Of a DNA stretch of 64,000 nucleotides, positions 4,568-63,385 are shown piece by piece. How positions within the stretch are numbered: position 1 is the first letter of the stretch; each line of letters starts with the position of its first letter. The position numbers and the translations under genes were made by a program. The stretch lies in NCBI GenBank assembly GCA_021018995.1, contig CM037584.1, positions 141,625,317-141,689,316 of the forward strand. Reading direction: 5' to 3'. The notes beneath the pieces were generated by a model. The model was not told the origin of the DNA. It saw only the letters and a program-made list of their open reading frames with translations, and did not search any database. The stretch comes from Chloranthus sessilifolius (taxonomy: Eukaryota; Streptophyta; Magnoliopsida; Chloranthales; Chloranthaceae).

Positions 4568-4896
4568 TGAAAATCGACCGGTCGAAAATCAAATCGATTG
4601 ATCGATTTTCACAAAATAGAGAATAATTTTACAATAAAGGGATAGCTTATCAAAATCGACAGGTCGAATGGAGTTCGACCGATCGATTTTGAAAACCGAC
4701 TGGTCAAAGTGAGTTCAACCGATCAATTTAAAAAATTGGCCGGTCGATTTTAGGATCGACCAGTCGATTTTCTTATGAGCATTGAAGATTGATGGAATTC
4801 GATCGGTCGATATCAAACTAACCGATCGAATTTGCTAGCTGGGGCTTTTAAGTATCAAACTGACCGATCGATTTTGAGTTCGACCGGTCGATTTTT
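4568..4896. repeat. E1 inter-ORF palindrome array (ACCGGT core)
   Basis: About 12 degenerate copies of a TCGACCGGTCGA/TCGACCGATCGA palindrome, often extended to AAATCG-N6-CGATTT, irregularly spaced by roughly 15-40 bp. It lies in the spacer between pol and the downstream ORF and ends 8 bp before a TATA box. The same motif fills part of E1's LTR (7605-8004) and A's LTRs. The variants are mostly C/T and G/A changes, as expected from loss of methylated CpG. Confidence 0.85.
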
Positions 4897-4903
4897 GCGC
4901 ATT

Positions 4904-4914
4904 TATATATATAA
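4904..4914 (+). promoter_or_regulatory. TATA box upstream of the E1 downstream ORF
   Basis: TATATATATAA lies directly after the palindrome array and 235 bp before the ATG at 5149. E2 and B have TATA-like boxes in the same place. I infer an internal promoter for the downstream ORF; no transcription evidence is available. Confidence 0.5.
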
Positions 4915-5148
4915 GGGCATTTTTTTTGTGGATTCGAAATATCAGATATCCTTCTTATTGGTTAGGGCTTTCTTTTGTTTCCCTCTTAGAGCTCGTTGGG
5001 GAAGAGTTTCAAACATTTTATCTCAGATTCGTGGGAAATCGGATTCAAATCGCGCCACAAGAGGTTAACCTAGTTCCTAATCTTTTGGTGGTTGGGTTTG
5101 CATTCTGTTTTTACCCTTAGTTTGGGATTATCTTGAAAAACCCTAGGA

Positions 5149-6555
5149 ATGCCGCCCAAAATACAAAAAACTTCGAAGCCGACGACTTCGAAACTATCTT
5201 TTCGATGTCCTAGTGCGTCGAGACCACCTCCGACACCAACACCACCAGAATCCCCATCTCCACCACAGTCACCAACACCATCTTCATCATCCTCACACCA
5301 TTCTTCACAACCATCATCACCACCACATTTAGAACTGCCCAATGAGTGGTGGGCTAGTAAGGATTTCGAGGATGAATATATCATTGACGAGGCCCTGTTT
5401 CAAGAACAGGATGTCCAGGGAAATACAGTGTGGGCTAAGGATTATATCGTCAAGGCTGGTTTAGGGAATATCCTTAAAGCATTGCATGAGTATTATTACC
5501 CTCGCCTAGTGAGGCTGTTTTACCAGAACATGAGTGACATTAAAAATCTGGGTTTGATTAAGACCAAGATTGACGGTCGTGAGTATCGATTCACTCTAAA
5601 CCACGCTTGTAAAGCCTTAGAATGCTATGATTCGTATGGTCGGGGAATCGAGTTATTACCCCCATTTCCAAAACCTGTGGACTACTTGGAGATTAGATGG
5701 CAGATGACCCAGGGACTACATGGGTCCGGTACGACGATTAGGAGGATCGATTTGCCTCCTCATTTATGGATGTTGGATACGATCATCAAGTGAAACCTTT
5801 ACCCACTGCGCCATAACACTGAGAGGGTAGGGGAAGTACAACGAGCCTTGTATTTGGCGTTCAGGGGCCGATGGTTTAGTGCGACCCAGATGGTTTTTGA
5901 GGGGATAAAGTACAAACAAGGGAAATTTATGAAGGGCAGAGCAAAACCAAATGATCATATTCCATATGCTCGCCTGTTATCAAGTATGATAGAGGACTAC
6001 TCGGATGAGGAAGCGTATCAAATTTTTGAGGAAGAACCGAGAGCAAATGACCACGTGGAATTGTTCACTTTTTCAGATTGGAGTCGAACCTATAACCAAT
6101 TGAAAAGGGTTCTTCCTCTCGGTGAGCAAGTATCACCACCTGTACCCGAAGCCCCACAAGAACAAGGACCACAAGAACATGGACCAGAAAAAGAACAGCC
6201 CATTCCACCTGTTCATGGACCACCAGCTCAGCAAAAAGAACAATTTCATGTACCTCCTATGCAGCATGCACCTGCTACATTTCACGATGTCCTCGCTCAC
6301 ATGGTTAGATTGGAAGAGAACAATCATTTGTTGCATCACCGGATGGATTATCATGAGGAAATATTTACACACCTGATGCAACATGCCTACCCCACCAATT
6401 ATATGACACAGCTCGTAGATGCTCATGCTATTGGTGATGAGCCATGGTACTTTACCACTGGAGCGTTTATGTCTGGTGAGGCTGTTGGATATGAGTCAGC
6501 TGGGGAGGCGGAAGCAGGACCTACTGATGAGCAGCCGGGAGATGCGGCAACATGA
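5149..6555 (+). pseudogene. E1 downstream ORF, 'putative plant transposon protein' family
   Basis: One reading frame of 468 codons broken only by a TGA at 5791-5793, so nearly intact. After an N-terminal Pro/Ser-rich, basic segment (residues 1-60) comes a globular domain with NEWWASKDFEDEYIIDEALF, YYYPRLVRLFYQNM and a PPHLWMLDTII block, then RALYLAFRGRWFSATQMVF and IPYARLLSSMIEDY. A Pro/Gln-rich stretch (about residues 325-380) and a helical region with likely coiled coil (LAHMVRLEENNHLLHHRM) follow, then an acidic tail. The globular part matches what I know as the Pfam 'putative plant transposon protein' family, common in plant retroelements. No enzymatic motif is visible and the function is unknown. 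Homologues lie in E2 (42634-43343 plus 61169-61699) and, more distantly, B (52172 on). The start fits a conserved CCCTAGGAATG context shared with E2. Confidence 0.8.
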
Positions 6556-7012
6556 GCAGGGATTTTGGAGTATGGGTATATATTTTGGGATATGTAGGAA
6601 TACTTTTCTTTTTGAAATTTTTTGTAATTAATACAGTGTATAGTTTATAACTGTTTAAATTTATCATGGCCTAGTTGCCACCTTTACTTCGTTAATTTGG
6701 TGTGGCTGTCGTAAGGAATTGTAGGATTACATGCGTAGTATATATATACCTTTCATTTTGTGAATGAATGGAATTGTAATCACCTTGTTTACTATTATGA
6801 ACAAATTTTCATGCAGGGTATGAATGTGTTATCTCTGCATGTGGTTGGATAGGTCTGTGGATGTGTTAAGTATGAGAGGTGTTAAATATGAGATCTCTTT
6901 TCCGTCCGTATTAAGATACATCGAACCTAACTCGAGATGTGTAGGAATTACCCTTTTAGACGTGATTTAGAAGTGAAAACTTACAGATACATTTTCGGGG
7001 ACAAAAATTCTT
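6556..7012 (+). other. E1 3' non-coding region
   Basis: AT-rich DNA between the downstream ORF and the polypurine tract. It ends with the TTTTCGGGGACAAAAATTC stretch typical of chromoviral 3' ends; E2 and A have close versions. No gene is seen. Confidence 0.6.
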
Positions 7013-7604: not shown

Positions 7605-8004
7605 AAAACTAACCGGTCGATTTTCAAATCGACCGATCGATTTTGTCAAGAGTGATGAGTTTGTGGGTTTCTGAACGAAACCGACCGGTCGAATGAAAAC
7701 CGACCGGTTGACCTTGAAAACTGACTGATCAAAATGAAACCGACTGGTTGATTCCCACAAAACAAAGAAAATGAAAAATTAGTTATGGGAAATTCGACCA
7801 GTCGATTTTAGATCGACCGGTTGATTTTGGAAATTTCACTAGTCAATTTTAGATCGACCGATCAATTTTGGAAACCGACTGGTCAATTTGGGAAATCGAC
7901 TGATCGGTTTTTGTGTGAAAGAAAAGGTTTGGTTTTCTTGAGGAAAACCGACAGGTCGAAATGAATTCGACTGGTCGATTTGGGAATCGACCGATCGATT
8001 TTGG
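7605..8004. repeat. E1 LTR palindrome array (ACCGGT core)
   Basis: I count about 15 copies of the 12-bp palindrome and its C/T and G/A variants, irregularly spaced by 15-50 bp. It is the same private motif as the inter-ORF array at 4568-4896. Here the array lies downstream of the TATA-like site, so it may be transcribed. Confidence 0.85.
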
Positions 8005-10531: not shown

Positions 10532-11336
10532 TGTAACATCCCGAAAAATTTCCAAAGACCATAGGTCCTAATCAAGTGTGTGCGTTCGTTAGAAGATGCT
10601 ACACCATTTTGGGTCCGTTTGAGCCTCGTGTGAGACTTTTAGACCAAAGCTCGTATACCGTGGGGGTGTATTCGCTTAATGCCGAGTTCCTTGTAATAGG
10701 TGATTCGGGTGTGCAGGCCCCACACCGAACCAAAAGATTAATTATATAATAGCTAACATTTTATTTTGGTGTGTCCGTTCCACACCGGAACAAGACATGT
10801 GGATAAGACTTAACACCCAAATGAGTGTTTGTGTTTTATATGGGAACCAGCCCATTTAACTTAAAATAGAAAGGCTTCCTTTGTAAGCCATTGACCGGTT
10901 TGCAATTTTGGGGTTTCTTGGGTTTCTAGAGAGAGAGAGAGAGAGAGCTGTGAGAAAAGAGAGAAGAGAAAGAAGGGAAGAGAACCTAGATGTTTTCTTT
11001 CAACCTTTTTGTGTAAGCCAACCATTTGATCAAGCCATACACGATAGATAGGGTGGTGAGCGTTGTGTGTGCAAGCTTGGAGTTCTATGCGAAATCCGTG
11101 GGTTGAGGATCGAATTAAATCCCCAATTTTTGACTTTGAAACCCTCGCTTGGGCGTGAGCATGTGGATTGAGCAATCGATCATTTAAAGGTGAGAAAAAT
11201 TTATATTAAGCTGTGATTTATAGTTATGTTAATCTTTAGTTAGGATGTGGGTGAAAGATTTGAAGAAAATGATGTAAATTTGAAAGAAAATGGGTTGGAG
11301 AAGTTCAAACCCGAGTTTGGGTGAAATCTGATGAAA

Positions 11337-11790
11337 TTGACCGGTCGATTTCAAAATCGACCGATCGATTTTTACAAAACAGTATGTAATTTGGGGTCTG
11401 GAGAAATCAACCGGTCGAATTTCACAGAGCTTGTTGACACTGCCTCGGTGTTTTGGTCATAACGTTTGATCCCAAACTCCGATTGATGCAACTGTTATAG
11501 TGTAGGAAAGAGGACAACGAGCTCTACAATTTCTGTGAATAGAAAAACTTGTGAATAAACTTTTTTAAAGGTCAAAATTTAGAGAGAAGTTGAGTCAAAT
11601 TTCAATTTCTGTCGAGATACGAAACCGACTGATCGAAATTATTTCGACCGGTCGATTTAGAAAATCGACCGATCGAAAGTAGCACGACTGGTCGATTTAT
11701 GAAAAATAATGAACGTGTAATTTTGTTATGTAGAAATCGATTGGTCGAATTTGAAAATCGACTAATCGAATTTGAAATCGACTGGTTGGA
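11337..11790. repeat. A 5' LTR palindrome array (ACCGGT core)
   Basis: Degenerate ATCGACCGGTCGAT and ATCGACCGATCGAT units in two clusters (11337-11420 and 11625-11790), separated by a non-repetitive insert. The same motif as E1, tying this non-autonomous element to E1. Confidence 0.8.
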
Positions 11791-12633
11791 TTTGACTGAG
11801 TTGTCGGTATTGCTTTAGTATTTTGACCATAACTTTTTACTTCGAACTCCGATTGATGCAATTCTTATGGCGTTGGAAAGAGAACAGGAAGATCTACAAT
11901 TTTATGAATTAAAAATTTTATGATTTCAAAGTTTTAAAGGTTTAAATTTAGGGGGAAGTTACATCAAATTCTAAGTTGGTACGAACTTGTCCATTTTTGC
12001 CTCGATTTTTGAGAAAACACTTAAATATGTCTAAGTCATTAGTAATTAATGTCAATCCTTAATATATCATGTATTTGTGATATAGATTGAGGGTAGGATT
12101 TGGTCGATAGGACTTTGCTTGGCTTTGCGCAACTTTCAGGTTAAGGTGGGGAAAATTTCATACACAATTGCATTTTGATTTCATTTCTTAGATGCTTGAT
12201 GTGATCGAATGAAAGGTGATAAGTTTTGATTTGAAATGAATTAGTATTTGAACTCTTTACAATGGAAGTCTTAGATATTTGAAATTTAATATTTGATTGA
12301 ATATTTTGATTGAAATACTCGAAAGCTTTGAATTATCAAATGTTTGACATATTGGTTGTTTTAGAAATTTATTGACGTATTGAGTCAAGCAATGATCTTC
12401 GTTTTGAACATTTTATGTAGCCTTCAGAAATCATGTAAGGATTTTGTTTTGAACATTATATGCAGTCTTCGAAAACCATGTAAGGAAATTAATTTTTGAC
12501 ATAGTATGTGAGTTTTTGCAAGCTTAGAATCTTGATTTGTATGGAAATCCTTTGAACACTAAACGAATAGAATTGAAACCATAAATCTTCAAATTGTGAA
12601 TCGAACCATAAGTCAAGAAACATGTAATGTGGA

Positions 12634-13085
12634 CCGCTATGGGTGGATTATAAGTATACCTTGGACAGCTTTGGCGGGATTTGCATACTCCTTTGGATAC
12701 CTTCGTATCTATGTACGCCCTTAGACCGCTTTGGTAGGATTTACGTACACCCTTGGATATTTTATATCTATGTACACCCTTGGACCGCTTTGGCGAGATT
12801 TACGTACTCCTTTGGACACCTTCATATCTATGTACGCCTTTGGACCGCTTTGGTGGGATTTCGTACACCCTTGGACATCTTTGTATCTATGTATGCCCTT
12901 GGACCGCTCTGGCGGGATTTACGTACTCCTTGGATTTCATTTGTCGTGAATCAAACTATAAGTCAAGAAAAATTGAAGTGGACCGGTATGGGTGGATTAT
13001 GTGTGTGTGGAATGCTATGGGTAGATTATATGCGTTTGTGGACTGGTATGGGCGGATTTTAAGTACCCTGTGGGCTGCTAGGGCG
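12634..13085 (+). repeat. A 5' LTR tandem repeat, GGACCGCTTTGGCGGGAT units
   Basis: About 60-bp units alternating two types (ending in ACTCCTTTGGA or ACACCCTTGGA), each beginning GGACCGCTTTGGCGGGATTT. The core matches the GGCGG module of the E1, S and X LTRs. The 3' LTR copy is at 18501-18935. Open frames across it with repeating YVHPWTAL-like peptides are by-products of the repeat. Confidence 0.8.
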
Positions 13086-13109
13086 GAATCGAATAAGTAA
13101 AAACTAAGA

Positions 13110-13460
13110 TAAGACATGTCAGTAAGCTACATAAGAATGTGTAAGACATGTAAGTAAGCTATGTAAGAATGTGTAAGATATGTAAGTAAGCTATGTAAGA
13201 ATGTGCAAGACATATAAGTAAATCTATGTAAGACTGTGTAAGATATGTAAGTAAGCTACGTAAGAAAGATAAGATGTGTAAGTGAATGTAATTCGAACTC
13301 AGTAAATCAAAGATAAGAAATTACTTTTGATAAGAAATCAGTTTGCCTTTGAAATCAGTTTTTAAGTTTGATAAGGAAATACCTTTGAAATCAATTTTGA
13401 ATTTTGATAAGAAAATGTCTTTGACATCGGTTTCAGTTTTGATAGGAAAAATTCCCTTGA
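13110..13460 (+). repeat. A 5' LTR short tandem repeats
   Basis: First come about five units of a roughly 31-bp repeat (TAAGTAAGCTATGTAAGAATG core, 13110-13290). Then come about four units of a roughly 42-bp repeat (TTTGAAATCAGTTTTGA core, 13320-13460). The 3' LTR has fewer copies of the first (18955-19045), so copy number changed after insertion. Confidence 0.75.
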
Positions 13461-13998
13461 ATTTAGTCCTAGTTTGACTATGAAAATGTTTTGATCTTGT
13501 CCTTGTATCTATGCATGTGATAAGATGTATATTGGTATCAATTTTCTCCACTGAGGTTAGACTGTTAGCTCACCCCGACTATACGTTCCAGGAATAACAC
13601 TTATCAGGAGACCAGACTTGAAGATTGAGGACTTGAGGATTTGTGAGATTTTTGGGATTGTAGATTTTATACATCGTGGATTTTGGAAAGTTCAGGCTTG
13701 ATACATTCATGCTATTATACATGTATGGTACACCACTATTAGGTGATGGTTGTCCATCACCGGTGGTTTGTTTTAGTTTACTGCTCATGTTGGATATTAG
13801 AACTAAAGATTTTATTCATGTCATATGTATTATCTGCTTTGATTTACGTATGTATATGGATGTGCCAAGTAAATTCTATATCAGATTGTGATCTACTATC
13901 TGGTAGTTCAGATTTTCCCATTTGATTTTGGTGTAAAGTAAAAAAAATAAAATAATATCTCAGAAAATTCAGGTTGGGAAAATCCGGGTTGTCACAGT

Positions 13999-16334: not shown

Positions 16335-19300
16335 TGTAACATCCCAAAAAATTTCCAAAGACCAAAGGTCCTAATCAAGTGTGTGCGTTCGTTAGAAAAT
16401 GCTTCACCGTTTCGGATTTTTAAAACGGGATCGTTTTGGGTCCGTTTGAGCCTCGTGTGAGACTTTTAGACCAAAGCACGTATATCATGGGGGTGTATTG
16501 GCTTAATGCCAAGTTTCGTCTAATAGGTGATTTGGGTGTGCAAGCCCCACACCGAACCAAAAGATTAATTATATAATAGCTAACATTTTATTTTGGTGTG
16601 TCCGTTCCACACCGGAACAAGACATGCGGATAAGACTTAACACCCAAATGGGTGTTTGTGTTTTGTATGGGAACCAGCCCATTTAACTTAAAATATAAAG
16701 GCTTCCTTTGTAAGCCATTGATCGGTTTGCAATTTTGGGGTTTCTTGGGTTTCTAGAGAGAGAGATAGAGAGCTGTGAGAAAAGAGAGAAGAGAAAGAAG
16801 GGAAGAGAACCTAGATGTTTTCTTTCAACATTTTTGTGTAAGCCAACCATTTGATTGAGCCATACATGATAGATAGGGTGGTGAGCATTGTGTGTGCAAG
16901 CTTGGAGTTCTACGCGAAATTCATGGGTTGAGGATCGAAGTAAATCCCCAATTTCTGACTTTGAAACCCTTGCTTGGGCGTGAGCACGTGGATCAAGGAA
17001 TCGATAATTTAAAAGTGAGAAAAATTTATGTTAAGCTGTGATTTATAGTTATGTTAATATTTAGTTAGGATGTGGGTGAAAGATTTGAAGAAAATGATGT
17101 AAATTTGAAAGAAAATGGGTTGGAGAAGTTCAAACCTGAGTTTGGGAGAAATTTGACGAAACCGACCGGTCAATTTCAAAATCGACTGATCGATTTTCAC
17201 AAAACAGTATGTAATTTGGGGTTTGGAGAAATCGATCGGTCAATTTGGAAATCGATCGATCGATTTTGGAAACCGACCGGCCAAATTTGACAGAGCTTGC
17301 TGACACTGCCTCGATGTTTTAGCCATAACCTTTTATCCCGAACTCCGATTGACACAATTCTTATGGCATTGGAAAAAGAACAGCGAGCTCTATAACTTCT
17401 GTGAATTGAAAAACTTGTGAATAAACTTTTTTAAAAGTCATAATTTAGATGGAAGTTGGGTCAAATTCCAATTTCTGTTGAGATACGAAACCGACTGATC
17501 AAAATTATTTCTACCGGTCGATTTGGAAAATCGATCGATCGAAAGTAGCACGACTGGTCAATTTATGAAAAATAGTGAACGTGTAATTTGGTTATGGAGA
17601 AATTGATCAGTCTAATTTGAAAATCGACTGATCGAATTTGAAATTGACTGGTTGAATTTGACTGAGTTGTCGATACTACTTTAGTATTTTGACCATAACG
17701 TTTTACTCTGAACTCTGATTGATGCAATTATTTTAGCGTTGGAAAGAGAATAGTAAGATCTACAATTTTTATAAATTAACAATTTTGTGAATCAAAAGTT
17801 TTAAAGGTCTAAATTTAGGAGAAAGTTACATCAAATTCTAAGTTGGCACGAACTTGCCCATTTCTGCCTCAATGTTTGAGAAAATACTTAAATTTGTCTA
17901 AGTCATTAGTAATTAATGTCAATCCTTAATATATCATGTATTTGTGATATAGATTGAGGGTAGGATTTGGTCGATAGGACTTTGCTTGGCTTTGCGCAAC
18001 TTTCAGGTTAAGGTGGGGAAAATTTCATACACAATTGCATTTTGATTTCATTTCTTAGATGCTTGATGTGATCGAATGAAAGGTGATAAGTTTTGATTTG
18101 AAATGAATTAGTATTTGAACTCTTTACAATGGAAGTCTTAGATATTTGAAATTTAATATTTGATTGAATATTTTGATTGAAATACTCGAAAGCTTTGAAT
18201 TATCAAATGTTTGACATATTGGTTGTTTTAGAAATTTATTGACGTATTGAGTCAAGCAATGATCTTCGTTTTGAACATTTTATGTAGCCTTCAGAAATCA
18301 TGTAAGGATTTTGTTTTGAACATTATATGCAGTCTTCGAAAACCATGTAAGGAAATTAATTTTTGACATAGTATGTGAGTTTTTGCAAGCTTAGAATCTT
18401 GATTTGTATGGAAATCCTTTGAACACTAAACGAATAGAATTGAAACCATAAATCTTCAAATTGTGAATCGAACCATAAGTCAAGAAACATGTAATGTGGA
18501 CCGCTATGGGTGGATTATAAGTATACCTTGGATAGCTTTGGCGGGATTTACATACTCCTTTGGATACCTTCGTATTTATGTATGCCCTTGGACCGTTTTA
18601 GTGGGATTTACGTACACCCTTGGACATTTTGTATCTATGTACGCCCTTGGACCACTTTGGCGGGATTTACGTACTCCTTTGGACACCTTCATTTTTATGT
18701 ATGCCCTTGGATCGCTTTGGTGAGATTTACTTACACCCTTGGACATCTTTGTATCTATGTACGCCCTTGGACCGCTCTGGCGGGATTTACGTACTCCATG
18801 GATCGCACTCGTCATGAATCGAGCTATAAGTCAAGAAAAATTGAAGTGGACCGCTATGGGCGGATTATGTGTGTGGACCGCTATGGGCAGATTATGAATT
18901 TTAAGTACCCTGTGGGCCGCTAGGGCCGAATCGAATTAGTAAAAACCAAGATAAAACATGTAAGTTACGTAAGAATGTGTAAGACATGTAAGTAAGCTAT
19001 GTAAGACTGTGTAAGACATATAAATAAGCTACGTAAGAAAGATAAGATGTTTAAGTGAATGTAATTCGAACTCTGTAAATCAAAGATAAGAAAATGCTTT
19101 TGATAAGAAATCAGTTTGCCTTTGAAATCAGTTTTGAAGTTTGATAAGGAAATGCCTTTGAAATTAGTTTTGAATTTTGATAAGAAAATATCTTTGACAT
19201 CGGTTTTAATTTTGATAGGAAAAATGCCCTTGAATTCAGTTCTAGTTTGAATATGAAAATGTTTTGGTCTTGTCCTTGAATCCATGCATGTGATAAGATG

Positions 19301-19764
19301 TATATTGGTATCAGTTTTCTCCACTGAGCTTAGACTGTTAGCTCACCCCGACTATACGTCACAAGTATAACACTTATCGGGAGACCAGACTTGAGGATTG
19401 AGGACTTGAGGATTTATGAGATTCCCGGGATCATAGATTTTATTCATCGTGGATTTTGGAAAGTTTAGGCCTGGTACGTTCATGCTATTATACATGTATG
19501 GTACACCACTGTTAGGTGATGGTTGGCCATCACCGGTGGTTTGTTTTAGTTTACTGCTCATGTTGGATATTAGAACTGAAGATTTTATTCATACTATATG
19601 TATTATCTGTTTTGATCTTCGCATGTATGTGGATGTACCAAGTAAATTCTGTATCAGATTGTGATCTACGATTTGGCGGTCCGGGTTTTCCCATTTTGTT
19701 TTGGTGTAAAGTAAAAAAAAAAAAATCTCAGAAAATTTAGGTTGGGAAAATCTGGGCTGTCACA
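16335..19764 (+). repeat. A 3' LTR (3430 bp)
   Basis: Runs from TGTAACATCC to GCTGTCACA and aligns along its length with 10532-13996. It carries the same palindrome array (17159-17660), tandem repeat (18501-18935) and hairpin (19515-19534). Bases 17895-18532 are identical to 12028-12665, while flanking stretches differ at about one site in ten. Confidence 0.92.
17159..17660. repeat. A 3' LTR palindrome array (ACCGGT core)
   Basis: Counterpart of 11337-11790. Several units are preserved in one LTR and mutated in the other, mostly by transitions. An extra unit pair occurs at 17228-17282. Confidence 0.8.
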
Positions 19765-19934: not shown

Positions 19935-20135
19935 GCGACAAATACGATTTCCCGCCTACTAAAAGCCAGAAAATCATAATTTACGATTCTTCAAAAGTGA
20001 CAAAAGAAGAAAAGTGAAAAATCGTAATCCAGAGAATCGTCAACTATGACGAAGCTATGAAAGATATAAAATTGTGATTTACGATTTTCTAATAAAGAGA
20101 AGAAATGAGAAATTGTAATTTACGATTTCCCAGAA
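19935..20135. repeat. C LTR palindrome array (AT-rich core)
   Basis: At least six degenerate AAATCGTAATTTACGATTT units, 15-45 bp apart. It lies about 300 bp upstream of the TATA box at 20431. The solo copy has the same array at 40040-40330. Confidence 0.8.
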
Positions 20136-24544: not shown

Positions 24545-25060
24545 CCCCCTTTCTTTTGTATTCACAGCTTGCCATCGTAAGGTGAAGGCGAGCTGTGCCT
24601 GTGACAAACCCTCAGTTCTTGGTATTCATAGCTCACTATTGTGATGTGACAGGGAGCTATGGTTGTGGTTGTGATTGTCGAGGTATTCTTAGTATTCACA
24701 GCGAGTTGCCGTCTTCTGATAGCAAGTTGTGTATAATTATCTTCTGCTATGTTTACATCCATAGTGAGCTATTGTCTCCTAATAGCGAGCTATGGCTGGG
24801 GATGTTGTCTTCTTGACGGTGAGCTATCCAGTGTCCATAGGGAGTTGCAGTCTTCTGATAGTGAGCTATTTATATTTTATTTCTATTTTGTTCACATTCA
24901 TATTGAGCTGCGGTTTCCCCGACAGCGGGCTGTGTATTCTATTTGTTGTTCTTTGGTCGAATACACAACCAGCTGTTGTGTCCTAACAACTAGCTATGCT
25001 TGGGTTCACTTTTCTTTGTTCTCCAATGACAGCTTGATGTCCCTTCATAACAACCAGCTG
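24545..25060. repeat. X LTR palindrome array (AGCT core)
   Basis: Repeated CACAGCTCGC/GCGAGCTATG-type units, later CAGCTGTTG units, spaced 20-45 bp, with inverted pairs (for example GTGAGCTAT against ATAGCTCAC). It is the private motif of this LTR family and is not seen elsewhere in the window. Confidence 0.7.
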
Positions 25061-25374: not shown

Positions 25375-25830
25375 AAGTGCATGCAATTGATTGCACGCCC
25401 CATATTTGGCGCGCAATTGGTCCCACTTGGATCAGACCCGTTCTTCCCATGAGACTTTTTTTTGGATTCGATTCTGCGCCCTATCCAGTGCGTGCAATCA
25501 GATTGCATGCCCAGTCACTGGCGCGCAATTGGTTCAATATGGACCAGTCTTTAACCTTCTAGAGGCCGCCTTAAGACCTGATTGCTTGCCTAAACCAGAA
25601 TGCGCAATCGATTGCCCGCGCTAAACCAGAACGCACAATTAGTTCTAATTAGATTAGAACTTAGACACTCGACTGAGCCAGTCAGACGTACACTCACTGA
25701 GTCGGTCACCAACTTAGAGAAATTAAGCGCCCGGGAGAGGGCATGTAATGCAATTAAGTGCACCATACAGGGCACATAATTGGATTTGATAAGCTAATTG
25801 CGCACCTCCCACAGGGCATGCAATTACCCG
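25375..25830. repeat. D LTR palindrome array (CAATTG / CAATCGATTG core)
   Basis: Units such as GCAATTGATTGC, GCGCGCAATTGG, GCGCAATCGATTGC and GCATGCAATTA recur about ten times, often with GCGC or GCATGC beside them. The array ends about 10 bp before the TATA-like box. Confidence 0.75.
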
Positions 25831-42237: not shown

Positions 42238-42390
42238 ACTAGCGCGCACGAGATTTAAGTCGCTCGCGTGACTGCTTCAAAAGGTCATGCGAGAGAACTG
42301 GCCATTTCAATTGCTCATGCGACTATTTTTCAGGCTTCAAGTTTCTGAAGGGTCCCTTGCATGACATTGAAAGTCGCTCACGCTACTGTC
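42238..42390. repeat. E2 inter-ORF array (CGCG/TCGC motif)
   Basis: GCGCGCACGAG, AGTCGCTCGCGTGAC, CATGCGAGAG, CTCATGCGAC and AGTCGCTCACGCTAC units, 20-40 bp apart. They resemble the TCGCG units of the E2 LTR (62745-63385). The array sits between pol and the downstream ORF and ends at a TATA box, exactly as in E1. Confidence 0.65.
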
Positions 42391-42402: not shown

Positions 42403-42633
42403 GGCTGTGGACCTTATTTCTACAAAAAATTTAGGCACGAAGGATTCAAAAGCTAGGGTTTCGTTTCCCCAACTTTCCAAACTCCATTCTCACGTCAATT
42501 TCGCGTCAATTCGCTTTAGATTTACATTGGATTCTCTACCACCAAGGGTTATCCAAGGTTTTTTCTTCACGTGTTGGGTAAAATTCTATCTTTTAACCTA
42601 ATTTTCTTAAAATTTTGTCGTAAATCCCTAGGA

Positions 42634-43343
42634 ATGGGATCAAGGAAGGTTTTCGCTTCAAAACCCTCACCTTCTAAGCAATCTCAAACAAGTACTCCAC
42701 CAATCGTAAGGGAACAACCCACGGAATGGTGGGATTCGAGGAAAATAGAAACTGAGTGGGTGATTCATGGTAGTTTGTTCGAGGGTCACGATTTGACCAA
42801 GTATACCCTCGAATATTTAATCACCACTGACTTGAAATCACTGCTAGAACCATTTCACACCCACTACTACCCTAGGCTCGTATGCCTATTTTAACAAAAG
42901 CTACGAATGAATGAAGACCAAATGAAGTTTGAGGTCGAGATCGACGACTACAAATTTCAATTCAATTTTGATGACATTTCGATTGTGATGGGCTGCCCAT
43001 CAACGTACGTTGAGGGTGGACCGTTACAACCCCCTAACCCATCTAAGATACCGTTTCTTGAAATAGTTGCCGATATGACCAAGGGAAAGACAAGGTTCGG
43101 TCTGTCTGTAAAGCGTGTCCAGTTGCCATGCCATATGTGGCCTTTGGACATTATTTTTAGGAAAAATTTGTTTCCAATGGGGCATGAATAGGAGAGGAGA
43201 GATGCACTTCTACAGTCCTTATACTCGGCCTATCAGGAGAAGTGGTTCTCTGCTCCTACGGTAGTAGAAGATGGCTTGGTATATGCTAGGAACAATGCTA
43301 GAGAGGGCTCCCAGAGGCATCCCTTCAAAAGACTACCTTATGC
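42634..43343 (+). pseudogene. E2 downstream ORF, first part (putative plant transposon protein)
   Basis: One frame from ATG 42634 with stops at 42892-42894 and 43189-43191. A basic Ser/Pro-rich start leads to REQPTEWWDSRKIETEWVIH, HYYPRLVCLF, VKRVQLPCHMWPLDIIFRKN and FKRLPYA, each matching E1's ORF. It is cut by B after the L-P-Y-A codons. The ATG context CCCTAGGAATG is identical to E1. Confidence 0.82.
43339..43343 (+). repeat. Target-site duplication of B, left copy
   Basis: TATGC, repeated perfectly at 61164-61168. Confidence 0.93.
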
Positions 43344-43675
43344 TATTAATCATTGAATTATGTCACTTTCCACCTCCTAACCTAGCCCTTATTAGACCTT
43401 AGAGCTATTTAATAATTAAAATTTGAGCATGTTTTTATAGTTAAAAATAATCTGCAATATGGTGCAGCAACCCATGTAATATGTGTCAAGAAAAGGAGAA
43501 TGAGAGCCAAGCATTGGAGCTGTTGGAAAAATAGAGATTGAACCATGGTGATCCCCCACCAAGGGGCTTTTCAGCATGCCTTGGACCCCTAGAAGTGCTG
43601 CAAGGAATGGAAAGGGGGGCCCACACATGAAGGAGTGTTGCAGCAGACAAGTCAAACCAGCTAAGAAGTAGAACT

Positions 43676-44175
43676 GTCAGCTCGAGCAGCTCTCGAGCAC
43701 ACTGCACCTTCAGCAATCTAAGCTCGAGCAGCTCTCGAGCAATTCAGAAGACTACAATACAACCACTCAAGCACATTCGAGCATATCTGGAGCAATCTCG
43801 AGCAGCTATGCCTGCAGCAAATCATCCACTTGAAGCTACCTTGAGCAGATATACCTTTATATCTTCAATGTCGAGCAGTTCTCGAGTAGTCTCGAGAACA
43901 TCAGAGCTTCAGAAGATACCTGTCGAGTGGATGCAACACTCTAGCCCTCGAGTAGTTAAAGAAAAGCTTCAAAAATAGCCTATCGAGAACATGTCAAGCA
44001 GTTCATAGTGCCTTTAGAGAACTTATCGACCAGCCTGTCGAGCTATTTTTAGAAGCAATTCAACCTATTGAGCAGCTCTGGACTTCAAGACTTCATCCAC
44101 TCGAGAACCATTCAGAAGCACCCTAGCCAGTCAAGATCTACTCGAGATTATATGCCTGAAGCCTCATCTGCTCGA
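43676..44175. repeat. B 5' LTR palindrome array (CTCGAG core)
   Basis: More than 15 CTCGAG or near-CTCGAG words in frames such as GCTCGAGCAGCTCTCGAGCA and CTCGAGCAATTCAGAAGAC. It lies about 200 bp upstream of the TATA box. The 3' LTR copy is at 57074-57520, with some units deleted. Confidence 0.85.
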
Positions 44176-51477: not shown

Positions 51478-51790
51478 GCTTTCTCGAGAGGATCAGGAGC
51501 CTTCAGGCATCCTCTCGAGACACTGCACTTGATGTAAAAATCAGCCTCGACAGGCTAATGTGCATAAATGGTATTTGCTAGAGATCCTCTCGAGTTGTGT
51601 GTGTTGAAGACCCGTCTTCTCGAAGTGCGGACTCTTCGTATAGAAACCTCTCGTGCAGTTCATATTCTCAGCATATGAGCCTCGACAGGCTCATTTGCAT
51701 AACTGCCATGTGCTCAAGATCCTCTCGAGCTGTTTGTTCTGAGCACCCAGCCTCTTGAAGCTCGGGTACTTAGCTTATAAACCTCTCATG
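51478..51790. repeat. B inter-ORF array (CTCGAG core) with tandem unit
   Basis: CTCGAG words and degenerate forms (CTCGACAGGCT, TCTCGAAG, CTCTCGTGCAG) between integrase and the downstream ORF. 51544-51678 and 51679-51800 are tandem copies (135-bp period), each starting GCCTCGACAGGC and ending in a TATA-like word plus AACCTCTC. Same private motif as B's LTRs. Confidence 0.8.
51776..51782 (+). promoter_or_regulatory. TATA-like box upstream of the B downstream ORF
   Basis: TATAAAC at the end of the array; the first tandem unit has GTATAGAAAC at the same place. The ATG is at 52172. Confidence 0.45.
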
Positions 51791-51800
51791 CAAGCCATTT

Positions 51801-52171
51801 CTCTCATTCTAATATTTTGCTCTAACACTCGAACACATTCACCCGACCCAAAATTTCTTCTTTCTTCTTAACTACGCCATCTGCTACACCATTTACCCAT
51901 TGCCTCTGCCATTTTGATTAAGCTACTAAAGCCACTGATTGTGCACCAAGAAGCTACATATTCGATTCACTGTGCACTATCCTCAATAATACCCTAGTTT
52001 TGGGTGAGTTTTCAAGTTCTTTTTCTTAGTCCTCTTCATTTCTCCGATTAGTTTTACTGGATTGAGTCATTTTTGCTGGGGGGGATTAGTTGCTTTTCCA
52101 TCCCCATTTAGTGGATTAAGTGTGTGCTGAGTTTTTGGGGAAACCTAGGGTTGCATAGAACTTAGGGTTTA
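51801..52171 (+). other. Leader of the B downstream ORF
   Basis: About 370 bp without ORF, pyrimidine-rich, running from the TATA-like box to ATG 52172. It resembles an untranslated leader and contains GGGTGAGTTTTC (a possible splice donor) near 52000. Confidence 0.45.
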
Positions 52172-54840
52172 ATGGCTGAAAATTTGGATTTTGAAGAAAC
52201 CCTACAAGACTTGCTGAGCCCTGCCCAAACCAATCCCCCTACTCCAACTAGAAAATCCCAGAGGATAGCCTCATCCTCAGCCCCTGAAACTCCTGTGAAA
52301 AACTTAAGAGAAAAGCTGTTTCGAATGACTCTACAGCCCCAAAGAAAAATTCCAAAGCTACCACCCAAATTCCTGAAATTGTCAAATCCAAGTAGAAAAA
52401 CGGGTAAAGGAGCAGCCCCTGAAGTTGACCCATTCACTACCCCAAATGAATTTGTGGCTACCCTCAATCTAGTACCAGAAATAATCTTTGATAAGGCATT
52501 CTTCACTAAGGAAGACCTGGCTATGGATGCCATAGAAATTTTGACTAAAGCCTCCCAAGAGTCATTATTAAAGCCTCTAGATGAAATTGTTTACCATAGA
52601 CTGGTGAGGTTATGGTACCAGAACATCAAAATGAAGGAATCTGGAGGAGGACCAAAGGGGGAGGATCCAGTGATGGTAATTCTCATTGATGATTTTGAGG
52701 CAGTTGTGGACACAACTAACATAGCACAGGCATTGGGCGTCCTAGCATTATATGACCCATCTTGTAACTTGGGTGACCTAATCGTTGTCTCCATGAAGGA
52801 GATTGCCCAGCATCTAACTCAAGGGAAGAAGGCATCAGGGGATTCAGTAATGAAAAGTGATTTTAGCCCAAACTTTCTTTTTATGGACACCATTTTGAGA
52901 AAAAACATCTTTGTGGCTGGTCATCAGCACGAAAGGAGACACCTAATAGTGGATGCATTATTCTCCTTCTCCAAAGGGCACTTCTTTAATGCTGCCAAGC
53001 TGATATTTGATGGTATGGAGGACATACATGGAAAAGTGAAGAAGAAGAAAAATGTGTAAGGGCTATCATACAGCAGGCTGATCACATCCTTGCTCATGAA
53101 GGGAGGGTATGTTTGGAAATTGGGGGAGCCCACTGATGAGTTACCACCAGTTTTATTTGGAAAGAAGCAGTGGAGAATCAGCATGACATTGCTGAGCAAG
53201 AAGAAAAAGAAGGAGCTAGCAGCAACCAATCCTGCAGAAACCTCTACAGCCACTGCTACAACCACTCCAGTCACCTTTGCAGCAACCTCTGCAACCTTGT
53301 CAGAGTAGCCACCCTTCCTTCCATTCCATTATCATCACCAGCACCTTCTACCCTCCATTCCATACCTACATCAATACCTTCATCACTTCCTCCACCTTCT
53401 ACCATCACTTCCATTCCAATGTCAGCCCCAACTCTTCCTATAATTTTCCCTTTCAACCTTCCTACACACCCAATCCATAAAACATACAAAAAGAAAACTC
53501 ACCACCCCACCACAGAACTCAGCCTATCCACTACCATACCCATTAACATACCAAGCCCAGCACTAGACCCACCTTCCCCTTTTACCTATGATGACAGTGG
53601 TCCAATGGCTACTGCCATTGAACCACCTAACCCCATTGAGCCCATTGACCCAATTCCCTCTCCTACCCATTTCCCTCTTATTTCACCTAACAAAGACTAA
53701 TTTCATATGACCCAAGACCATTTCAGAATAGTAGGGTATTAAGCTTTAATAGACTTCATTGTGGGGGATATTAGGCATGAGTACACCCCTCTACCTGAAT
53801 CCCCATAAGCCTATCAGTTTAACCATGCCCCTACCTCACCATTCCAACCAATCCCTCACACCCAACCTGTAACCCTAGCCATTCTTGACCCTCTAACTCA
53901 AATCATATCCCTCCTAACCTCTCTCCAATCTCAAATCCATACTAACACGAAAAACCAGGCCTCCATCCAAACAAGCCTTAACTCCATCCAATTCACCCTT
54001 CAAAATTGTATCCCACCAACCCAACCACCTACACCTACCCCAGTCCCTACCCCTCCTCCCTGCCAGTAGCCTTCTACATCTATGGTAAAAGCTGATGCTA
54101 CCACCCAAACTGACTTTGACTCTGAAGAGCTGGCTATAGTCCCCCTTTCCACTTCCTTAACCTTCACCCAAACTAAAACCACTGAGGAGCTGATCCCTGC
54201 CCAGCCATCCATGTCTGCCCTAACCTTCCATCATGCTACTGAAGCTGCTCTTGTATCCATATATGCTCATGGCCCATCTAACTGGGCCATTGTACTAGCT
54301 AACCCAATCATCTTACCTCCAGCACCCACCCTTAATGTTCACATGGATGCCAACCCATATCTTGCAAAGGATGTGTGTAAGCTGGTTGTCTTTGTCAGAA
54401 ATAGTGTCCTACAGAGATGTGAAAATTAGTTAGAACTGATGAAGATAACTAATTGGAAGAAATTGGAAGCAGTCATATTAGAGCATCAGAAGGAGCTGAG
54501 GGCCATGCAAGAAAAGTTGGACAATGCTGTAACTGGGTATCAACTGTATGAGAGGAGGGCTAGCCAATATGAAAGGTTGTATGAATCCTTATCAGCCACA
54601 CTCATGTCTCTAAGTGTTAAAAATATACAACCTCCAACAGAAGGCAAGGGAGTTAAATACAAGAGTCCACACTTCAGAAGAGCGGTATAAAAGCAAGGAA
54701 ACCAGTAGCTTCAAGGACAAAAGCTGGTGTTGCCAAAGCATAAAATGTCAAGAAGGGCAAGGAGAAGACTGCTGGAGACCCCATTGATCTAGACTCTGAT
54801 TCAGACCACCTTTAGGAGTTACTGTAGTTACATTTTTAGA
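52172..54840 (+). pseudogene. B downstream ORF (putative plant transposon protein / Athila ORF)
   Basis: The ATG at 52172 opens 295 codons before the first stop, and the frame then continues to about 53308. The N-terminus has KSQRIASSSA and a basic stretch. The domain shows NEFVATLNLVPEIIFDKAFF, YHRLVRLWYQNIKM, DDFEAVVDTTNIAQALGV, LFMDTILRKNIF and ARR-type LIVDALFSF, matching E1 and E2 blocks in the same order. A long Pro/Thr/Ser-rich middle (53280-54080, frameshifted) and a coiled-coil end (EAVILEHQKELRAMQEKLDN, 54460-54540) follow. No transmembrane segment is evident. In Athila this place is often called env-like; nothing here shows an envelope function. Confidence 0.78.
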
Positions 54841-57073: not shown

Positions 57074-57520
57074 CAGCTCGAGCAACTCTCGAGCACACTG
57101 CACCTTTAGCAATCTCAGCTCGAGCAGTTCAGAAGACTGCAATACAACCACTCGAGCAGATCTGGAGCAATCTTGAGCAGCTATGTCTGCAATAAATCAT
57201 CCACTCGAAGCTACCTCGAGCAGATATACCTTCAGATCTTCAATGTCGAGTAGACATCAGAGCTTCAGAAGATACTTGTCGAGTGGATGCAACACTCTAG
57301 CCCTCGAGCAATTAAAGAAAAGCTTTAGAAACAGCCTGTCGAGAACCTATCAAAAACATGTCGAGCAGTTCATAGTGCCTTCAGAGAACCTTTGGACCAG
57401 CCCGTCGAGCTGTCTTCAGAAGCAATTCGACCTATCAAGCAGCTCTAGACTTCAAGACTTCATCCACTCGAGAATCATTCAGAAGCACCCTAGCCACTCG
57501 AGATCTGCTCGAGATTATAT
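57074..57520. repeat. B 3' LTR palindrome array (CTCGAG core)
   Basis: Same array as 43676-44175. It contains AGCTCGAGCAGTTCAGAAGA, whose flank GCAGTTCAGAAGA recurs in the E2 LTR array with a CGCG core. Confidence 0.85.
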
Positions 57521-59100: not shown

Positions 59101-59659
59101 TGAACCTTAAATCGAATTGTGCAATAAATATAGTTATTTACTGTGAATTTGTGCTAATAGATAATAACACTCAGCCCGTGCATTCATGTTTACTGTTTAT
59201 CTCTTAAACATGAATCTTTCATCCACCTCACATCCCTGGGATGTCATGCTGTCTATTACATCTCTGCGATGCTTGTGTGTTCATACATCCCTGGGATGAT
59301 CTTTCTCTTACTTAACAAATTCCTCTTTTACTTTCGTAAACACATGCACTATTGCCATTTACTTTGTGCTTTGCATTAACTAGAACTCAACAAAATTTAA
59401 CGAAGCTTGCATCTTACACTATCACTACATATGGGCTTGTAATATAGTATACTAGTTAGGTATTCCCCGACCTTACATGCATCTCGAACCATTAAATCCT
59501 CAAACCTGATCCTACTATGAGTAACTCAACGGTTCGGCTTAACCTAGGCATGATCAACATATGCAAAATATTATTACAATGTTTAAACAATGGGTCAAGA
59601 AGCCTAGGTTCAATTACACTTTATTTACAAACTAAACTAGGCTCCAAAGTCTAAATTCC

Positions 59660-59930
59660 TCAAATCGATCGAACGATTTCCAAATCGTTCGAATGATTCA
59701 CAAAATCGTTCGAACGGTTTCTAAATCGTTCGAACGAATTCTCCATTTACTTCTTTATCTTCTGAGCAAACCGTTCAATCGATTTTTATTTTGATCAAAC
59801 GGTTTCCAAAATCAAACGAACGAAATTCAAATCATTCGATCGACTTACTCAGAAACCCTTCTCTGTTTTCAAATCTTTTCTCAGGCCAAATTCGTTCGAT
59901 TGGATTCTCATTTCGATTGAACGAATTTGT
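59660..59930. repeat. S palindrome array (TTCGAA core)
   Basis: About ten units of AAATCGTTCGAACGATTT and variants. The AAATCG...CGATTT frame is that of the E1/A and C arrays; the core is different. Confidence 0.85.
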
Positions 59931-61168: not shown

Positions 61169-61699
61169 CCGATTGATTACTTACATGATTGAGACCCATG
61201 TCAACGAAGACAACGAAAAGTTTTCGATATATCCGAAAGAAACTGTATGATCGAAAATGTTGAAGTATATAAATATGAGGATTTAAAGTGAGCCTGAATA
61301 GTCTGAGTACGAGCATCAAGCACCAACAGACAAAAGAATTAGCCAAGCAAGCCCAACAACAACAACAACAACAGCCACCTCAGCAACCCTATGTCGAGCC
61401 AGACCAATCGGCTCAGTACCCGATGCCACCACACCAAGCTCAAGAACAACCATCAATTCCCCCATATGGACCTCCAAGGCATCACACTCCAATAGATCCA
61501 ACAGCAGAATGAGCTACACACATGTTAGCTCTACTACCATGAGGCGATGATCAACGATGTGATGCGGTATGCCTATCCATCGAACTACCTTCAGCGCATG
61601 GCTGAAACTAGAGCATATGTGCCAGAGGCTTCTAGTTCCAGAGCCGGTGGAGTGGAGGGTGATGACGTGGGCGTGCACATGGGTGGTGATGAGGACTAG
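61169..61699 (+). pseudogene. E2 downstream ORF, second part
   Basis: It resumes as RLITYMIETHV directly after the B target duplication, matching E1's ARLLSSMIEDY. Then comes a Gln/Pro-rich stretch from a (CAA)n run (61358-61380), and an end with the Y-A-Y-P-S-N-Y-L-Q-R-M block (E1: AYPTNYMTQL) and acidic stop at 61697-61699. At least two frameshifts and some stops. Confidence 0.8.
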
Positions 61700-62581
61700 C
61701 CGGGAGGCTATTGTGTCGGGATATCTTTGTTTTGGATATGTAATTTTGTGAAATTTTGGATATTTGGAACGTGTAAAATTATGAAAATGGTAAATTTTGG
61801 ATATGTAGATTTGCACTTAAAACAATTATGAATTTTGGTTAATTAAGAATGTTGGATGTGATGGATCTCATCAGTTGTGAATGGAGCAAATTGGGTGTGT
61901 GAATGTTTATTTGTATATGCCCTTTTTATATGCAGGAATAGTCATGAATTGAATGTGTAAATCGGTATGCATTAAAATTGTATGTCCATTGTAGGTACAA
62001 GTTGAATTACCAATAGTTAATTCATTTAAACGTGAAGGAGTTGTGGATAAATTTTACTATGAATGACTTATGTTCGGTTTCTTGTAATGAGTTATGTGTT
62101 AAATTGAAACTTCTGCTAAACTCATGGTCTTGTTATATGATGGATTGACAGGTTAGAGGTTGATTGCTCGATGTGAATTTGGTTACTGGAGATTTACTTA
62201 TAAATGTCTTTCTGTATAATTTATAATCAATGTATGAGTAGTCGGATAATTCAGGTATGATTATATAGTAACAGGGTGTTATTGTGAATGGTTTGATGGT
62301 AAACAAAAGTGACATGTGTATGACTTTTATGGTTAGATTGGATGTGAATAATGATGTGAATGTGCAGGTGTGTAAAGGTACGTGGTTATGTGTGTGATTG
62401 CAGGAAAGATGAATAGTTATGCAGGTGTGATAGGATACATCAATGAGTGTGTCCTGTTTGAATTGGCCGTATGCTGGTATGTGAGCAAGTGTCTCTTCGG
62501 TATAAGTGTGTGATTAATAGGATGAGTGTGTTAAAGGCAAATGGTGTGCGTGTGATCAATTTTCGAGGATGAAAATTTTAT
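61700..62581 (+). other. E2 3' non-coding region
   Basis: No supported gene. It ends with the TTTTCGAGGATGAAAATTTT block common to chromoviral 3' ends. Confidence 0.6.
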
Positions 62582-62594
62582 AAGTTAGGGAGAA
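62582..62594 (+). promoter_or_regulatory. E2 polypurine tract
   Basis: AAGTTAGGGAGAA directly before TGTAACAACC. Confidence 0.85.
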
Positions 62595-62744
62595 TGTAAC
62601 AACCCCAAAACTTAGGAAAATGTGTCGAACACTTAACTTAGGTGTATGTACTAGCAAGTGAAACATGCTATGTGCGAAACAACCAAATGTTTTGGCACCA
62701 GAAGTCCCTCAGAAGAATGAACCATGAATCCAGACCATAGAAGA

Positions 62745-63385
62745 GCCTCGCGCAACTGACAAAGCTCCAGAGGATTCAGAAAAATACACTTCGTGCAGTC
62801 CTCGCGAAGTTCCAAGATTTCACAAACAAGTTCTCGCACAGTAGAGTGACAGGAGAGCTTCAGAAGCCTTGAGTCGCACAGCTCTCGCAAAGTTTAGAAG
62901 TTAAAGGTCGCGCAGCTCCCGCGCAGTTCAAGAAGACCCCTCTCACCCTCGCGCGGTTCGCTCAGGACAGCTGAGGAGAGAGAGCTTCAGAATCCTGCCT
63001 CACGCAGCTGTTGCGCAGTAGCCGCGGGATGTAAATATCAAGAGAACCTGTCGCGCAGTTCAGAAGAGCCTCAACGCCTCGCGAGCATCCTCGCGAAGTT
63101 CCATTAAGAAGTGAACTTCGCAGCTCTGCTCGGAAAAGAAACGATTTCAAATTAGCCTCACAAAGTGAACGGAATGCTCATACGCCCGCTATTCATAAGT
63201 ATCAATCCAACTGTGCGAAGCCCAATCCAGCGAGAGCTTAACTGTCTACCTCGCGACTGCTCAAAGCATCAAGAAGCTGTAACTACGCGACGTCTGAAGC
63301 TTTAATGTTAAACTCAACCACGCGAAGACTAGAGCTACCACGCGACATGTCTGGGAATCGACTGCAACCTAGCGAAGCTCTGAAC
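62745..63385. repeat. E2 LTR palindrome array (TCGCGA/CGCG core)
   Basis: More than 15 units such as CTCGCGAAGTTCC, GTCGCGCAGTTCAGAAG, CTCGCGCGGTTC and TCGCACAGCTCTCGCAAAG. The flank GCAGTTCAGAAG is shared with B's array. It lies about 180 bp upstream of the TATA box. Confidence 0.82.

What the first reader, a model, noticed from the sequence alone, without database searches (positions are those of the whole stretch)
4568..63385. Every LTR family carries its own array of one degenerate short palindrome
Arrays with a private core occur in E1 (4568-4896, 7605-8004) and A (11337-11790, 17159-17660; ACCGGT), S (59660-59930; TTCGAA), C and its solo copy (19935-20135, 40040-40330; TAATTTA), B (43676-44175, 51478-51790, 57074-57520; CTCGAG), E2 (42238-42390, 62745-63385; CGCG), D (25375-25830; CAATTG) and X (24545-25060; AGCT). 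Units are degenerate, 15-50 bp apart and not head-to-tail copies, unlike ordinary satellites. Seven families from three lineages converging on the same design points to a shared function. I know of no description of this in LTR elements; the nearest analogy is the family-specific motif arrays bound by VANC anti-silencing proteins of VANDAL elements.
Basis: partly seen in the sequence, partly recalled or inferred. Interest (0 to 1): 0.88.

Follow-up and report, generated by a model that had tools for sequence, protein, structure and literature searches.

The report
Paired palindrome arrays in plant retrotransposons
Several families of plant jumping genes carry rows of a short mirror-image DNA word, a different word in different families, both in their end repeats and just in front of an extra gene, which looks like a private switch that the element may throw with its own protein; a similar layout was already known from another group of plant elements.

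Summary
The arrays are real and family-specific, but the finding needs correction. Three listed arrays (4568-4896, 42238-42390, 51478-51790) are not in LTRs but between pol and an extra ORF (ORF3), which is homologous in the Tekay-like E1 and E2 and the Athila-like B. In the window's own genome the pre-ORF3 array recurs at a fixed place, with a core that goes with ORF3 type: 47 of 48 B-type stretches CTCGAG; of 36 E1-type, 32 ACCGGT, 3 ATTAAT, 1 no array; 3 of 3 E2-type AGTCGC-N4-GCGACT. A TATA-like box follows the last site in 28 of 29 E1-type and 28 of 47 B-type loci. B-type spacings cluster near multiples of 10.5 bp. I read the arrays as upstream sites of two promoters, LTR and internal ORF3 promoter, bound by a dimeric protein, most likely ORF3. 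The design is not undescribed: Sireviruses (Ty1/copia) have palindromic boxes in LTRs and before ENV (PMC2829016). New are its spread to Ty3/gypsy, the core-to-ORF3 correspondence and the phasing.

The parts
4568..4896 (+). E1 internal array, core ACCGGT in frame AATCGA..TCGATT, between pol end (~4398) and ORF3
   Evidence: L035
4904..4909 (+). TATA-like box 24 nt from the start of the last array site (internal ORF3 promoter, inferred)
   Evidence: L035 row
5146..6552 (+). E1 ORF3 (in-frame stop at 5791-5793; pieces handled apart)
7605..8004 (+). E1 LTR array, core ACCGGT; LTR starts about 7026 (TGTAACG after a purine tract)
10532..13996 (+). A 5' LTR (TGTAACATCCC..TGTCACA; Met-type PBS follows; TSD TGATC/TGATT), array 11337-11790
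16335..19764 (+). A 3' LTR, array 17159-17660; gag pieces but no significant ORF3 match between the LTRs
19935..20135 (+). C array (AATCGTAATTTACGATT type), not significant by the shuffle test; C LTR starts near 19765
40040..40330 (-). second C copy array (reverse orientation), not significant by the shuffle test
24545..25060 (.). X array, ATAGCGAGCTAT type; abuts the D LTR start; LTR status not shown
25375..25830 (+). D array, CAATTG type with longer GC flanks, in a putative Tat-type LTR starting about 25065
42238..42390 (+). E2 internal array, AGTCGC-N4-GCGACT dyads, between pol and ORF3; TATA-like box at 42395-42400
42631..43344 (+). E2 ORF3, first part (broken; interrupted by the nested B element)
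61496..61698 (+). E2 ORF3, last part beyond the B insertion (weak match, E 0.001)
62745..63385 (+). E2 LTR array (TCGCGCAGTTC / ACGCGAC half-sites); LTR starts about 62595; TATA-like box 63560
43676..44175 (+). B 5' LTR array, core CTCGAG; TATA-like box at 44380; PBS TGGCGCCG at 45455
51478..51790 (+). B internal array, core CTCGAG, between integrase and ORF3; TATA-like box at 51776
52169..53056 (+). B ORF3, open 296-codon part, homologous to E1 and E2 ORF3
57074..57520 (+). B 3' LTR array, core CTCGAG
59660..59930 (-). S array, core TTCGAA in frame AATCGT..ACGATT; solo Tekay-like LTR 58119-60515 on the minus strand, nested in the B 3' LTR; array at about +586 of its LTR (E1: about +580)

Best explanation
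The arrays are upstream regulatory sites of two promoters in one element: the LTR promoter and an internal promoter that drives ORF3. Each family's arrays are bound by a family-specific dimeric protein, most likely the ORF3 product itself, which would switch on (or keep unsilenced) both the genomic RNA and its own gene. Shown by sequence: array presence, position, the correspondence of core and ORF3 type, TATA-like boxes before ORF3, regular spacing. Inferred: promoter activity, protein binding, and ORF3 as the binder. Relatives without ORF3, such as A, would use the protein of an autonomous relative.
For: Location: sites of the E1 core occur at 1.90 per 100 bp at -650..-250 of ORF3 and at most 0.07 in five other bins (30 loci); B core 0.78-0.88 in the two bins from -900 to -250 and at most 0.04 in four others (48 loci, 36 for the farthest bin). 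Core and ORF3 type: B-type 47 of 48 CTCGAG, E1-type 32 of 36 ACCGGT and 3 ATTAAT, E2-type 3 of 3; the three ATTAAT loci are those held at 55 percent identity to E1 ORF3, the ACCGGT ones at 58 percent or more. In a tree of ORF3 pieces the split that sets L085, the one ATTAAT-type protein held, and the B-type apart from the ACCGGT-type rows has support 0.82. De novo, the best palindromic 12-mer prints z>=3 in 61 of 78 loci (33 of 48 B-type, 28 of 30 E1-type; z is the best of many overlapping windows). TATA-like box within 100 nt 3' of the last site: 28 of 29 E1-type (6 of 29 after one letter shuffle), 28 of 47 B-type (6 of 47). Phasing: B-type CTCGAG spacings, resultant 0.73 at 10.5 bp (209 spacings, not independent); the 52 distinct values give 0.42, none of 20000 random draws as high. 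ATTAAT-word pairs: 1008 places, 0 for the reversed pattern; the 50 listed are all 19-22 bp apart although 19-26 was allowed; an unobserved palindromic core gave 0. Same core in LTR and internal array in E1, B and the L084/L086 element. By eye ORF3 has a basic or S/P-rich N-terminus, conserved core, P/Q-rich linker and coil-like C-terminus. Outside support: Arabidopsis Athila6A has an ENV-ORF promoter (PMC4977677, passages); a sunflower Athila ORF related to PF20167 has a predicted nuclear signal (PMC11728184, passages).
Against: No binding, expression or methylation data. No structure could be predicted and no solved relative was found by sequence, so a DNA-binding fold is unproven. ORF3 and array are linked on one element, so their match could be descent alone. 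The four-core assignment takes the commonest of four given words even where sites are few; de novo, 11 of 48 B-type loci (L014, L027, L028, L030, L065, L066, L069, L071, L072, L074, L078) and L042 and L056 of the E1-type gave another best word, and 17 of 78 loci fall below z 3. E2's LTR and internal consensus agree only partly. After the LTR array a TATA-like box nearby was seen in B and E2; none within about 500 bp in E1 and D, only at +859 in A; S was scanned on the wrong strand and C not at all. E1-type spacings other than multiples of 20.5 bp show no phasing (n=12, p 0.71); B-type has a few off-phase spacings. S, C, D and X have no ORF3 identified in the window.
Confidence: 0.5

Rival explanations
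1. The arrays are promoter boxes bound by host transcription factors; each family has adopted a different host factor, and ORF3 is unrelated to binding.
For: Plant LTR boxes are often recognised by stress-related host factors (PMC2829016 background passage); palindromic cores such as CTCGAG and ACCGGT are short enough for host dimers; the Sirevirus authors discuss nuclear or stress factors. The position and TATA evidence here fits equally.
Against: Cores change between relatives (ACCGGT to ATTAAT within E1-type, TTCGAA in S at the same LTR place) while the layout stays, and the change goes with ORF3 type where both were seen.
Confidence: 0.3
2. The palindromes act as RNA: hairpins in the element transcript for packaging, export or as small-RNA sources.
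For: The E1 LTR array, the only one folded, folds far better than shuffles (z -9.07, 0 of 100 as good); maize Sirevirus palindromes are small-RNA hotspots (PMC10760457 and PMC5311732, passages).
Against: Any palindrome array folds well; the internal arrays end 5' of TATA-like boxes and would then not be in the ORF3 mRNA, and B-type sites are phased to the DNA helix. Small-RNA targeting may be a side effect.
Confidence: 0.1
3. Neutral tandem duplication of a 20-21 bp unit that happened to be palindromic; no function.
For: E1-type spacings cluster at 19-21, 41-44 and 60-63 bp, and non-multiples show no phasing; tandem repeats are frequent in plant Retand elements (PMC11963269, passages).
Against: Fixed place before ORF3 in loci down to about 53-55 percent ORF3 identity, several distinct B spacings near 10.5-bp multiples, different cores in one layout, and the same core in the LTR and internal arrays of B although the flanks hardly align.
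Confidence: 0.07

Closest known systems
Sirevirus repeated motif (RM) boxes, Ty1/copia (Bousios et al. 2010, PMC2829016; abstract passage, sections 9, 19, 20 and other passages read)
   Same: Palindromic boxes, per-element consensus, clustered in the upper half of the LTR upstream of a TATA box and also upstream of the ENV gene (linker copies in the nine ENV elements, none in the four without).
   Different: Those are Ty1/copia and all but one share a CGG-CCG core; here the elements are Ty3/gypsy (Tekay-like, Athila-like, probably Tat), cores differ more (ACCGGT, ATTAAT, TTCGAA, CTCGAG, AGTCGC-N4-GCGACT), and the core goes with a homologous ORF3. In the parts I read the paper does not propose that ENV binds the boxes.
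VANC anti-silencing proteins and VANDAL motif arrays (PMC5735166, PMC10398659, passages read)
   Same: Element-encoded ORF family, short target words repeated in non-coding parts of the same element, words differ between related families.
   Different: VANDALs are DNA transposons; the VANC21 and VANC6 words quoted are not palindromes; binding and demethylation are shown there, nothing is shown here.
Foamy virus Tas with LTR and internal promoter (PMC8670036, PMC4929722; starts of abstracts as listed)
   Same: One trans-activator acts on LTR and internal promoter; accessory gene at the 3' end (recalled).
   Different: Animal retroviruses; no homology claimed; ORF3 activity untested.
Athila6A ENV-ORF promoter, Arabidopsis (PMC4977677, passages read)
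   Same: An Athila element with a separate promoter for the 3' ORF.
   Different: No palindrome array in Athila6A is reported in the passages read.
Spm TnpA binding sites (TnpA activation and demethylation mentioned in PMC10398659, passage; site layout recalled)
   Same: Element protein acting on repeated short sites in both orientations (recalled).
   Different: DNA transposon, unrelated protein (recalled).

Membership tests
Sirevirus RM boxes | palindromic boxes in many copies in the LTR | tested here: met
   for the LTR arrays of E1, A, S, B and E2; C not significant
Sirevirus RM boxes | further copies upstream of the ENV-like ORF | tested here: met
   (E1, B, E2 types); that ORF3 is ENV-like is by position only
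Sirevirus RM boxes | CGG-CCG core | tested here: not met
   only ACCGGT contains CCGG; CTCGAG, ATTAAT, TTCGAA do not
Sirevirus RM boxes | host element is a Ty1/copia Sirevirus | tested here: not met
   Integrase_H2C2, RVT_1 and Ty3_capsid Pfam hits and chromodomain-like end; lineage names Tekay/Athila/Tat are from recalled signatures
VANC/VANDAL system | element-encoded protein binds the repeated motif | not testable with these tools
   needs a binding assay; structure prediction was off
VANC/VANDAL system | motif differs between related element families and goes with the ORF type | tested here: met
   the ACCGGT/ATTAAT split was noticed after the fact and rests on three loci, one with protein letters
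VANC/VANDAL system | loss of DNA methylation on expression | not testable with these tools
   no methylation data
VANC/VANDAL system | Mutator-like DNA transposon | tested here: not met
   LTR elements
Pfam PF20167 Transposase_32 | profile score at or above the curated cut-off of 45 bits | tested here: not met
   matched by 18 of 34 members at E<=0.1, best 4e-7, 30.5 bits for L084
Foamy-type Tas circuit | internal promoter for the 3' ORF | tested here: inconclusive
   array plus TATA-like box before ORF3; no transcript data

The most novel reading that the evidence does not exclude
The so-called envelope-like or PF20167-related ORF3 of plant Ty3/gypsy elements is a sequence-specific, dimeric trans-activator or anti-silencer whose DNA specificity keeps changing, and every core change is copied into two separate arrays of the element (LTR and internal promoter): a foamy-virus-like two-promoter circuit with VANC-like private target words, evolved in gypsy elements in parallel to Sireviruses.
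Probability: 0.42. Interest if true: 0.87.

Novelty: new variant of a known kind. Interest (0 to 1): 0.66.

Why it matters
The function of the extra ORFs of plant LTR elements is an open question; they are often called envelope-like although plant cells have walls. A match between ORF3 type and a palindromic DNA word, found before ORF3 and in the LTR, turns this into a direct test (does ORF3 bind its own word?). If true, it would give plant gypsy elements a transcriptional self-activation system, could help explain fast LTR turnover, and would supply a set of diversified DNA-binding proteins with known target words.

Tried and rejected
Plain zero-loop palindrome density: too blunt, since units are degenerate; replaced by shared-motif tests. 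Loose pattern ACCGGT-N10-40-ACCGGT genome-wide: 6715 against 6185 for the reversed pattern, hardly enriched and mixed with other families; tighter 14-mer pairs were used instead. Helical phasing in E1-type arrays beyond the 20.5-bp unit: not significant. First orientation of loci was wrong for minus-strand hits and was redone. Apparent CTCTAGAG cores in some B-type loci: in the three that I read (L030, L069, L072) these are halves of CTCGAGAGGAT/ATCCTCTCGAG units; L027 and L065 were not read. L074 (CGCG sites before a B-type ORF3): looks like a reverse LTR insertion on reading. L087 (stretch beyond ORF3 of L085): no array found, uninformative. Protein database search with B ORF3: 1295 candidates, none at E<=0.001. 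Solved structures: only E 0.55 or worse. Row L062 was dropped from the second alignment because the piece was in a wrong frame, and L017 and L019 were also left out there; four pieces with under 60 core residues were left out of the tree, and E2win, a 70-residue piece, is misplaced in it with support 0. In one search one E1-type and one B-type locus without a called site were not counted. Literature searches: (and 73 for foamy virus); one search found the Sirevirus paper; none of these listings showed palindrome arrays matched to ORF3 in Ty3/gypsy elements, but most subscription papers are not held (Bousios 2016 Genome Research is known to me only through citing papers).


Full report
1. WHAT IS THERE. 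The window is a nest of plant LTR elements. E1 (5' part of the window) has gag, RT and integrase pieces ending near 4398, then an array, then an ORF (ORF3, 5146-6552 with one in-frame stop), then an LTR from about 7026 with a second array. A (10532-19764) is an element with LTRs of about 3.4 kb, 93 percent identical (K2P 0.073); by its flanks it sits between the purine tract and the LTR of C. B (about 43342-61166) is Athila-like: LTR, PBS at 45455, RT at 48396, integrase pieces, an internal array 51478-51790, ORF3 from 52169, and a 3' LTR split by the S solo LTR. B itself sits inside ORF3 of E2, whose integrase end, internal array and first ORF3 part lie before 43344 and whose last ORF3 part (weak match) and LTR lie after 61167. 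D is a putative Tat-type LTR. Lineage names rest on recalled signatures plus the Pfam hits.

2. ARE THE ARRAYS MORE THAN CHANCE? Yes for E1, A, S, B, X and E2; less clearly for D; not by the 12-mer test for C. Cores are strongly enriched in their own arrays within the window. S, a minus-strand LTR homologous to the E1 LTR (78-79 percent in two blocks downstream of the array), carries its TTCGAA array at about +586 of the LTR where E1 has ACCGGT at about +580: same place, same AATCG..CGATT frame, other core.

3. Three listed arrays are internal and lie 240 to 690 nt before ORF3. ORF3 of E1 and B are homologous (29 percent over 158 positions, E 6e-17 for the pair), as are E1 and E2 (34 percent over 171 residues by tblastn, 1.3e-28). 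Their commonest Pfam match is PF20167 Transposase_32, below the curated cut-off (18 of 34 aligned pieces at E<=0.1, best 4e-7). A published Athila ORF of sunflower matches the same family and has a predicted nuclear signal (PMC11728184, passages).

4. OTHER COPIES. The window's own genome (2.17 Gb) was searched with ORF3 of B (132 scored of 45539 candidates), E1 (150 of 48151) and E2 (150 of 24104). I held letters for 87 pre-ORF3 stretches: 48 B-type (the 30 best hits and 18 of lower identity), 36 E1-type (the 30 best hits and 6 of lower identity), 3 E2-type (the window and two). Assigning each to the commonest of four cores: B-type 47 of 48 CTCGAG; E1-type 32 of 36 ACCGGT, and L085, L089 and L090 ATTAAT with 8, 11 and 13 sites; L091 has one site and no array; E2-type 3 of 3 with 2 to 4 sites. 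Without naming a core beforehand, the best palindromic 12-mer prints z>=3 in 61 of 78 loci, z being the best of many overlapping windows; 13 of the 78 gave a best word that is not plainly the family word (listed under evidence against). Site density peaks before ORF3 and is near zero in the flanking bins and in the first 600 nt of ORF3. In the ORF3 tree L085 falls with the B-type, outside the ACCGGT-type rows (support 0.82); the proteins of L089 and L090 were not held, only their 55 percent identity to E1.

5. PROMOTER SIGNS. In E1-type loci a TATA-like box follows the last site in 28 of 29, in 26 of these 20-26 nt from its start; B-type 28 of 47, 21 at 50-65 nt and 7 at 15-22 nt; after one letter shuffle of the flanks 6 of 29 and 6 of 47. 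In the LTRs a TATA-like box near the array was seen in B (+205) and E2 (+175). Arabidopsis Athila6A has a described ENV-ORF promoter (PMC4977677, passages).

6. SPACING. B-type CTCGAG spacings cluster near 11, 21, 31, 53, 63, 75, 84, 94, 104 and 114 bp, that is near whole turns of DNA, with a few off-phase values; the distinct values alone reject chance. E1-type spacings are multiples of about 20.5 bp, which a duplicated unit would also give; the 12 spacings that are not multiples show no phasing. Genome-wide, 1008 close pairs of the ATTAAT word exist against none of the reversed word; the 50 listed are all 19-22 bp apart although up to 26 was allowed. The S word gave 8 pairs against 0, an unobserved palindromic core 0.

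7. MECHANISM. I hold it likely (about 0.75) that the arrays are upstream sites of two promoters, and about even that ORF3 is the protein that binds them. The strongest argument is that separate arrays in one element keep the same core (E1, B, and L084 with its LTR stretch L086), that cores differ between families, and that core goes with ORF3 type. The weak point is linkage: ORF3 and arrays descend together, so only binding tests or recombinants can separate cause from descent. E2 is only partly concordant.

8. WHAT IS KNOWN. Sireviruses have palindromic box arrays in the LTR upstream of TATA, and before ENV in the ENV-bearing elements only (PMC2829016). Maize Sirevirus palindromes attract small RNAs (passages in PMC10760457 and PMC5311732). 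VANC proteins bind repeated, family-specific words in VANDALs (PMC5735166, PMC10398659, passages). A 2026 paper sets Tekay extra ORFs beside VANC in its discussion (PMC12844716, passage). So the design is not new in LTR elements as such; its presence in Ty3/gypsy lineages with a matched homologous ORF3 was not seen in my searches (listed under Tried and rejected).

9. VERDICT. New variant of a known kind; interest 0.66, rising to 0.87 if ORF3 is shown to bind its own array.

Noticed in passing
36997-39030 (-): Several antisense open frames downstream of a Tat/Retand-like pol (28013-35930), in the place where Retand elements carry antisense TRP28 ORFs (PMC11963269, passages).
   Followed up: no
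12659-12931, 13110-13266, 18526-18797, 18960-19039: Tandem repeats of about 59-60 bp and 32 bp inside both A LTRs; the 32-bp array is longer in the first LTR.
   Followed up: no
22235-23205: A roughly 480-bp tandem duplication, about 90 percent identical.
   Followed up: no
44700-44814: A 58-bp tandem duplication in the B 5' LTR.
   Followed up: no
L001-L004 and the listing: Another dispersed family has ACCGGT inside long palindromes of the type GGTACGTATCG...CGATACGTACC, apparently a further palindrome-rich element.
   Followed up: no
19765-21227 against 39037-40503: Two C-type copies in opposite orientation, about 74-78 percent identical, some 18-19 kb apart.
   Followed up: no
10335-10528 and 56546-56741: The 200 bp before the purine tract are 79.5 percent identical in the C host element and B, although their LTR arrays differ.
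   Followed up: partly
42238-42390 and 62745-63385: E2 internal and LTR arrays share CGCG-type half-sites but differ in arrangement (dyad with 4-nt spacer against mostly single half-sites); unexplained.
   Followed up: partly
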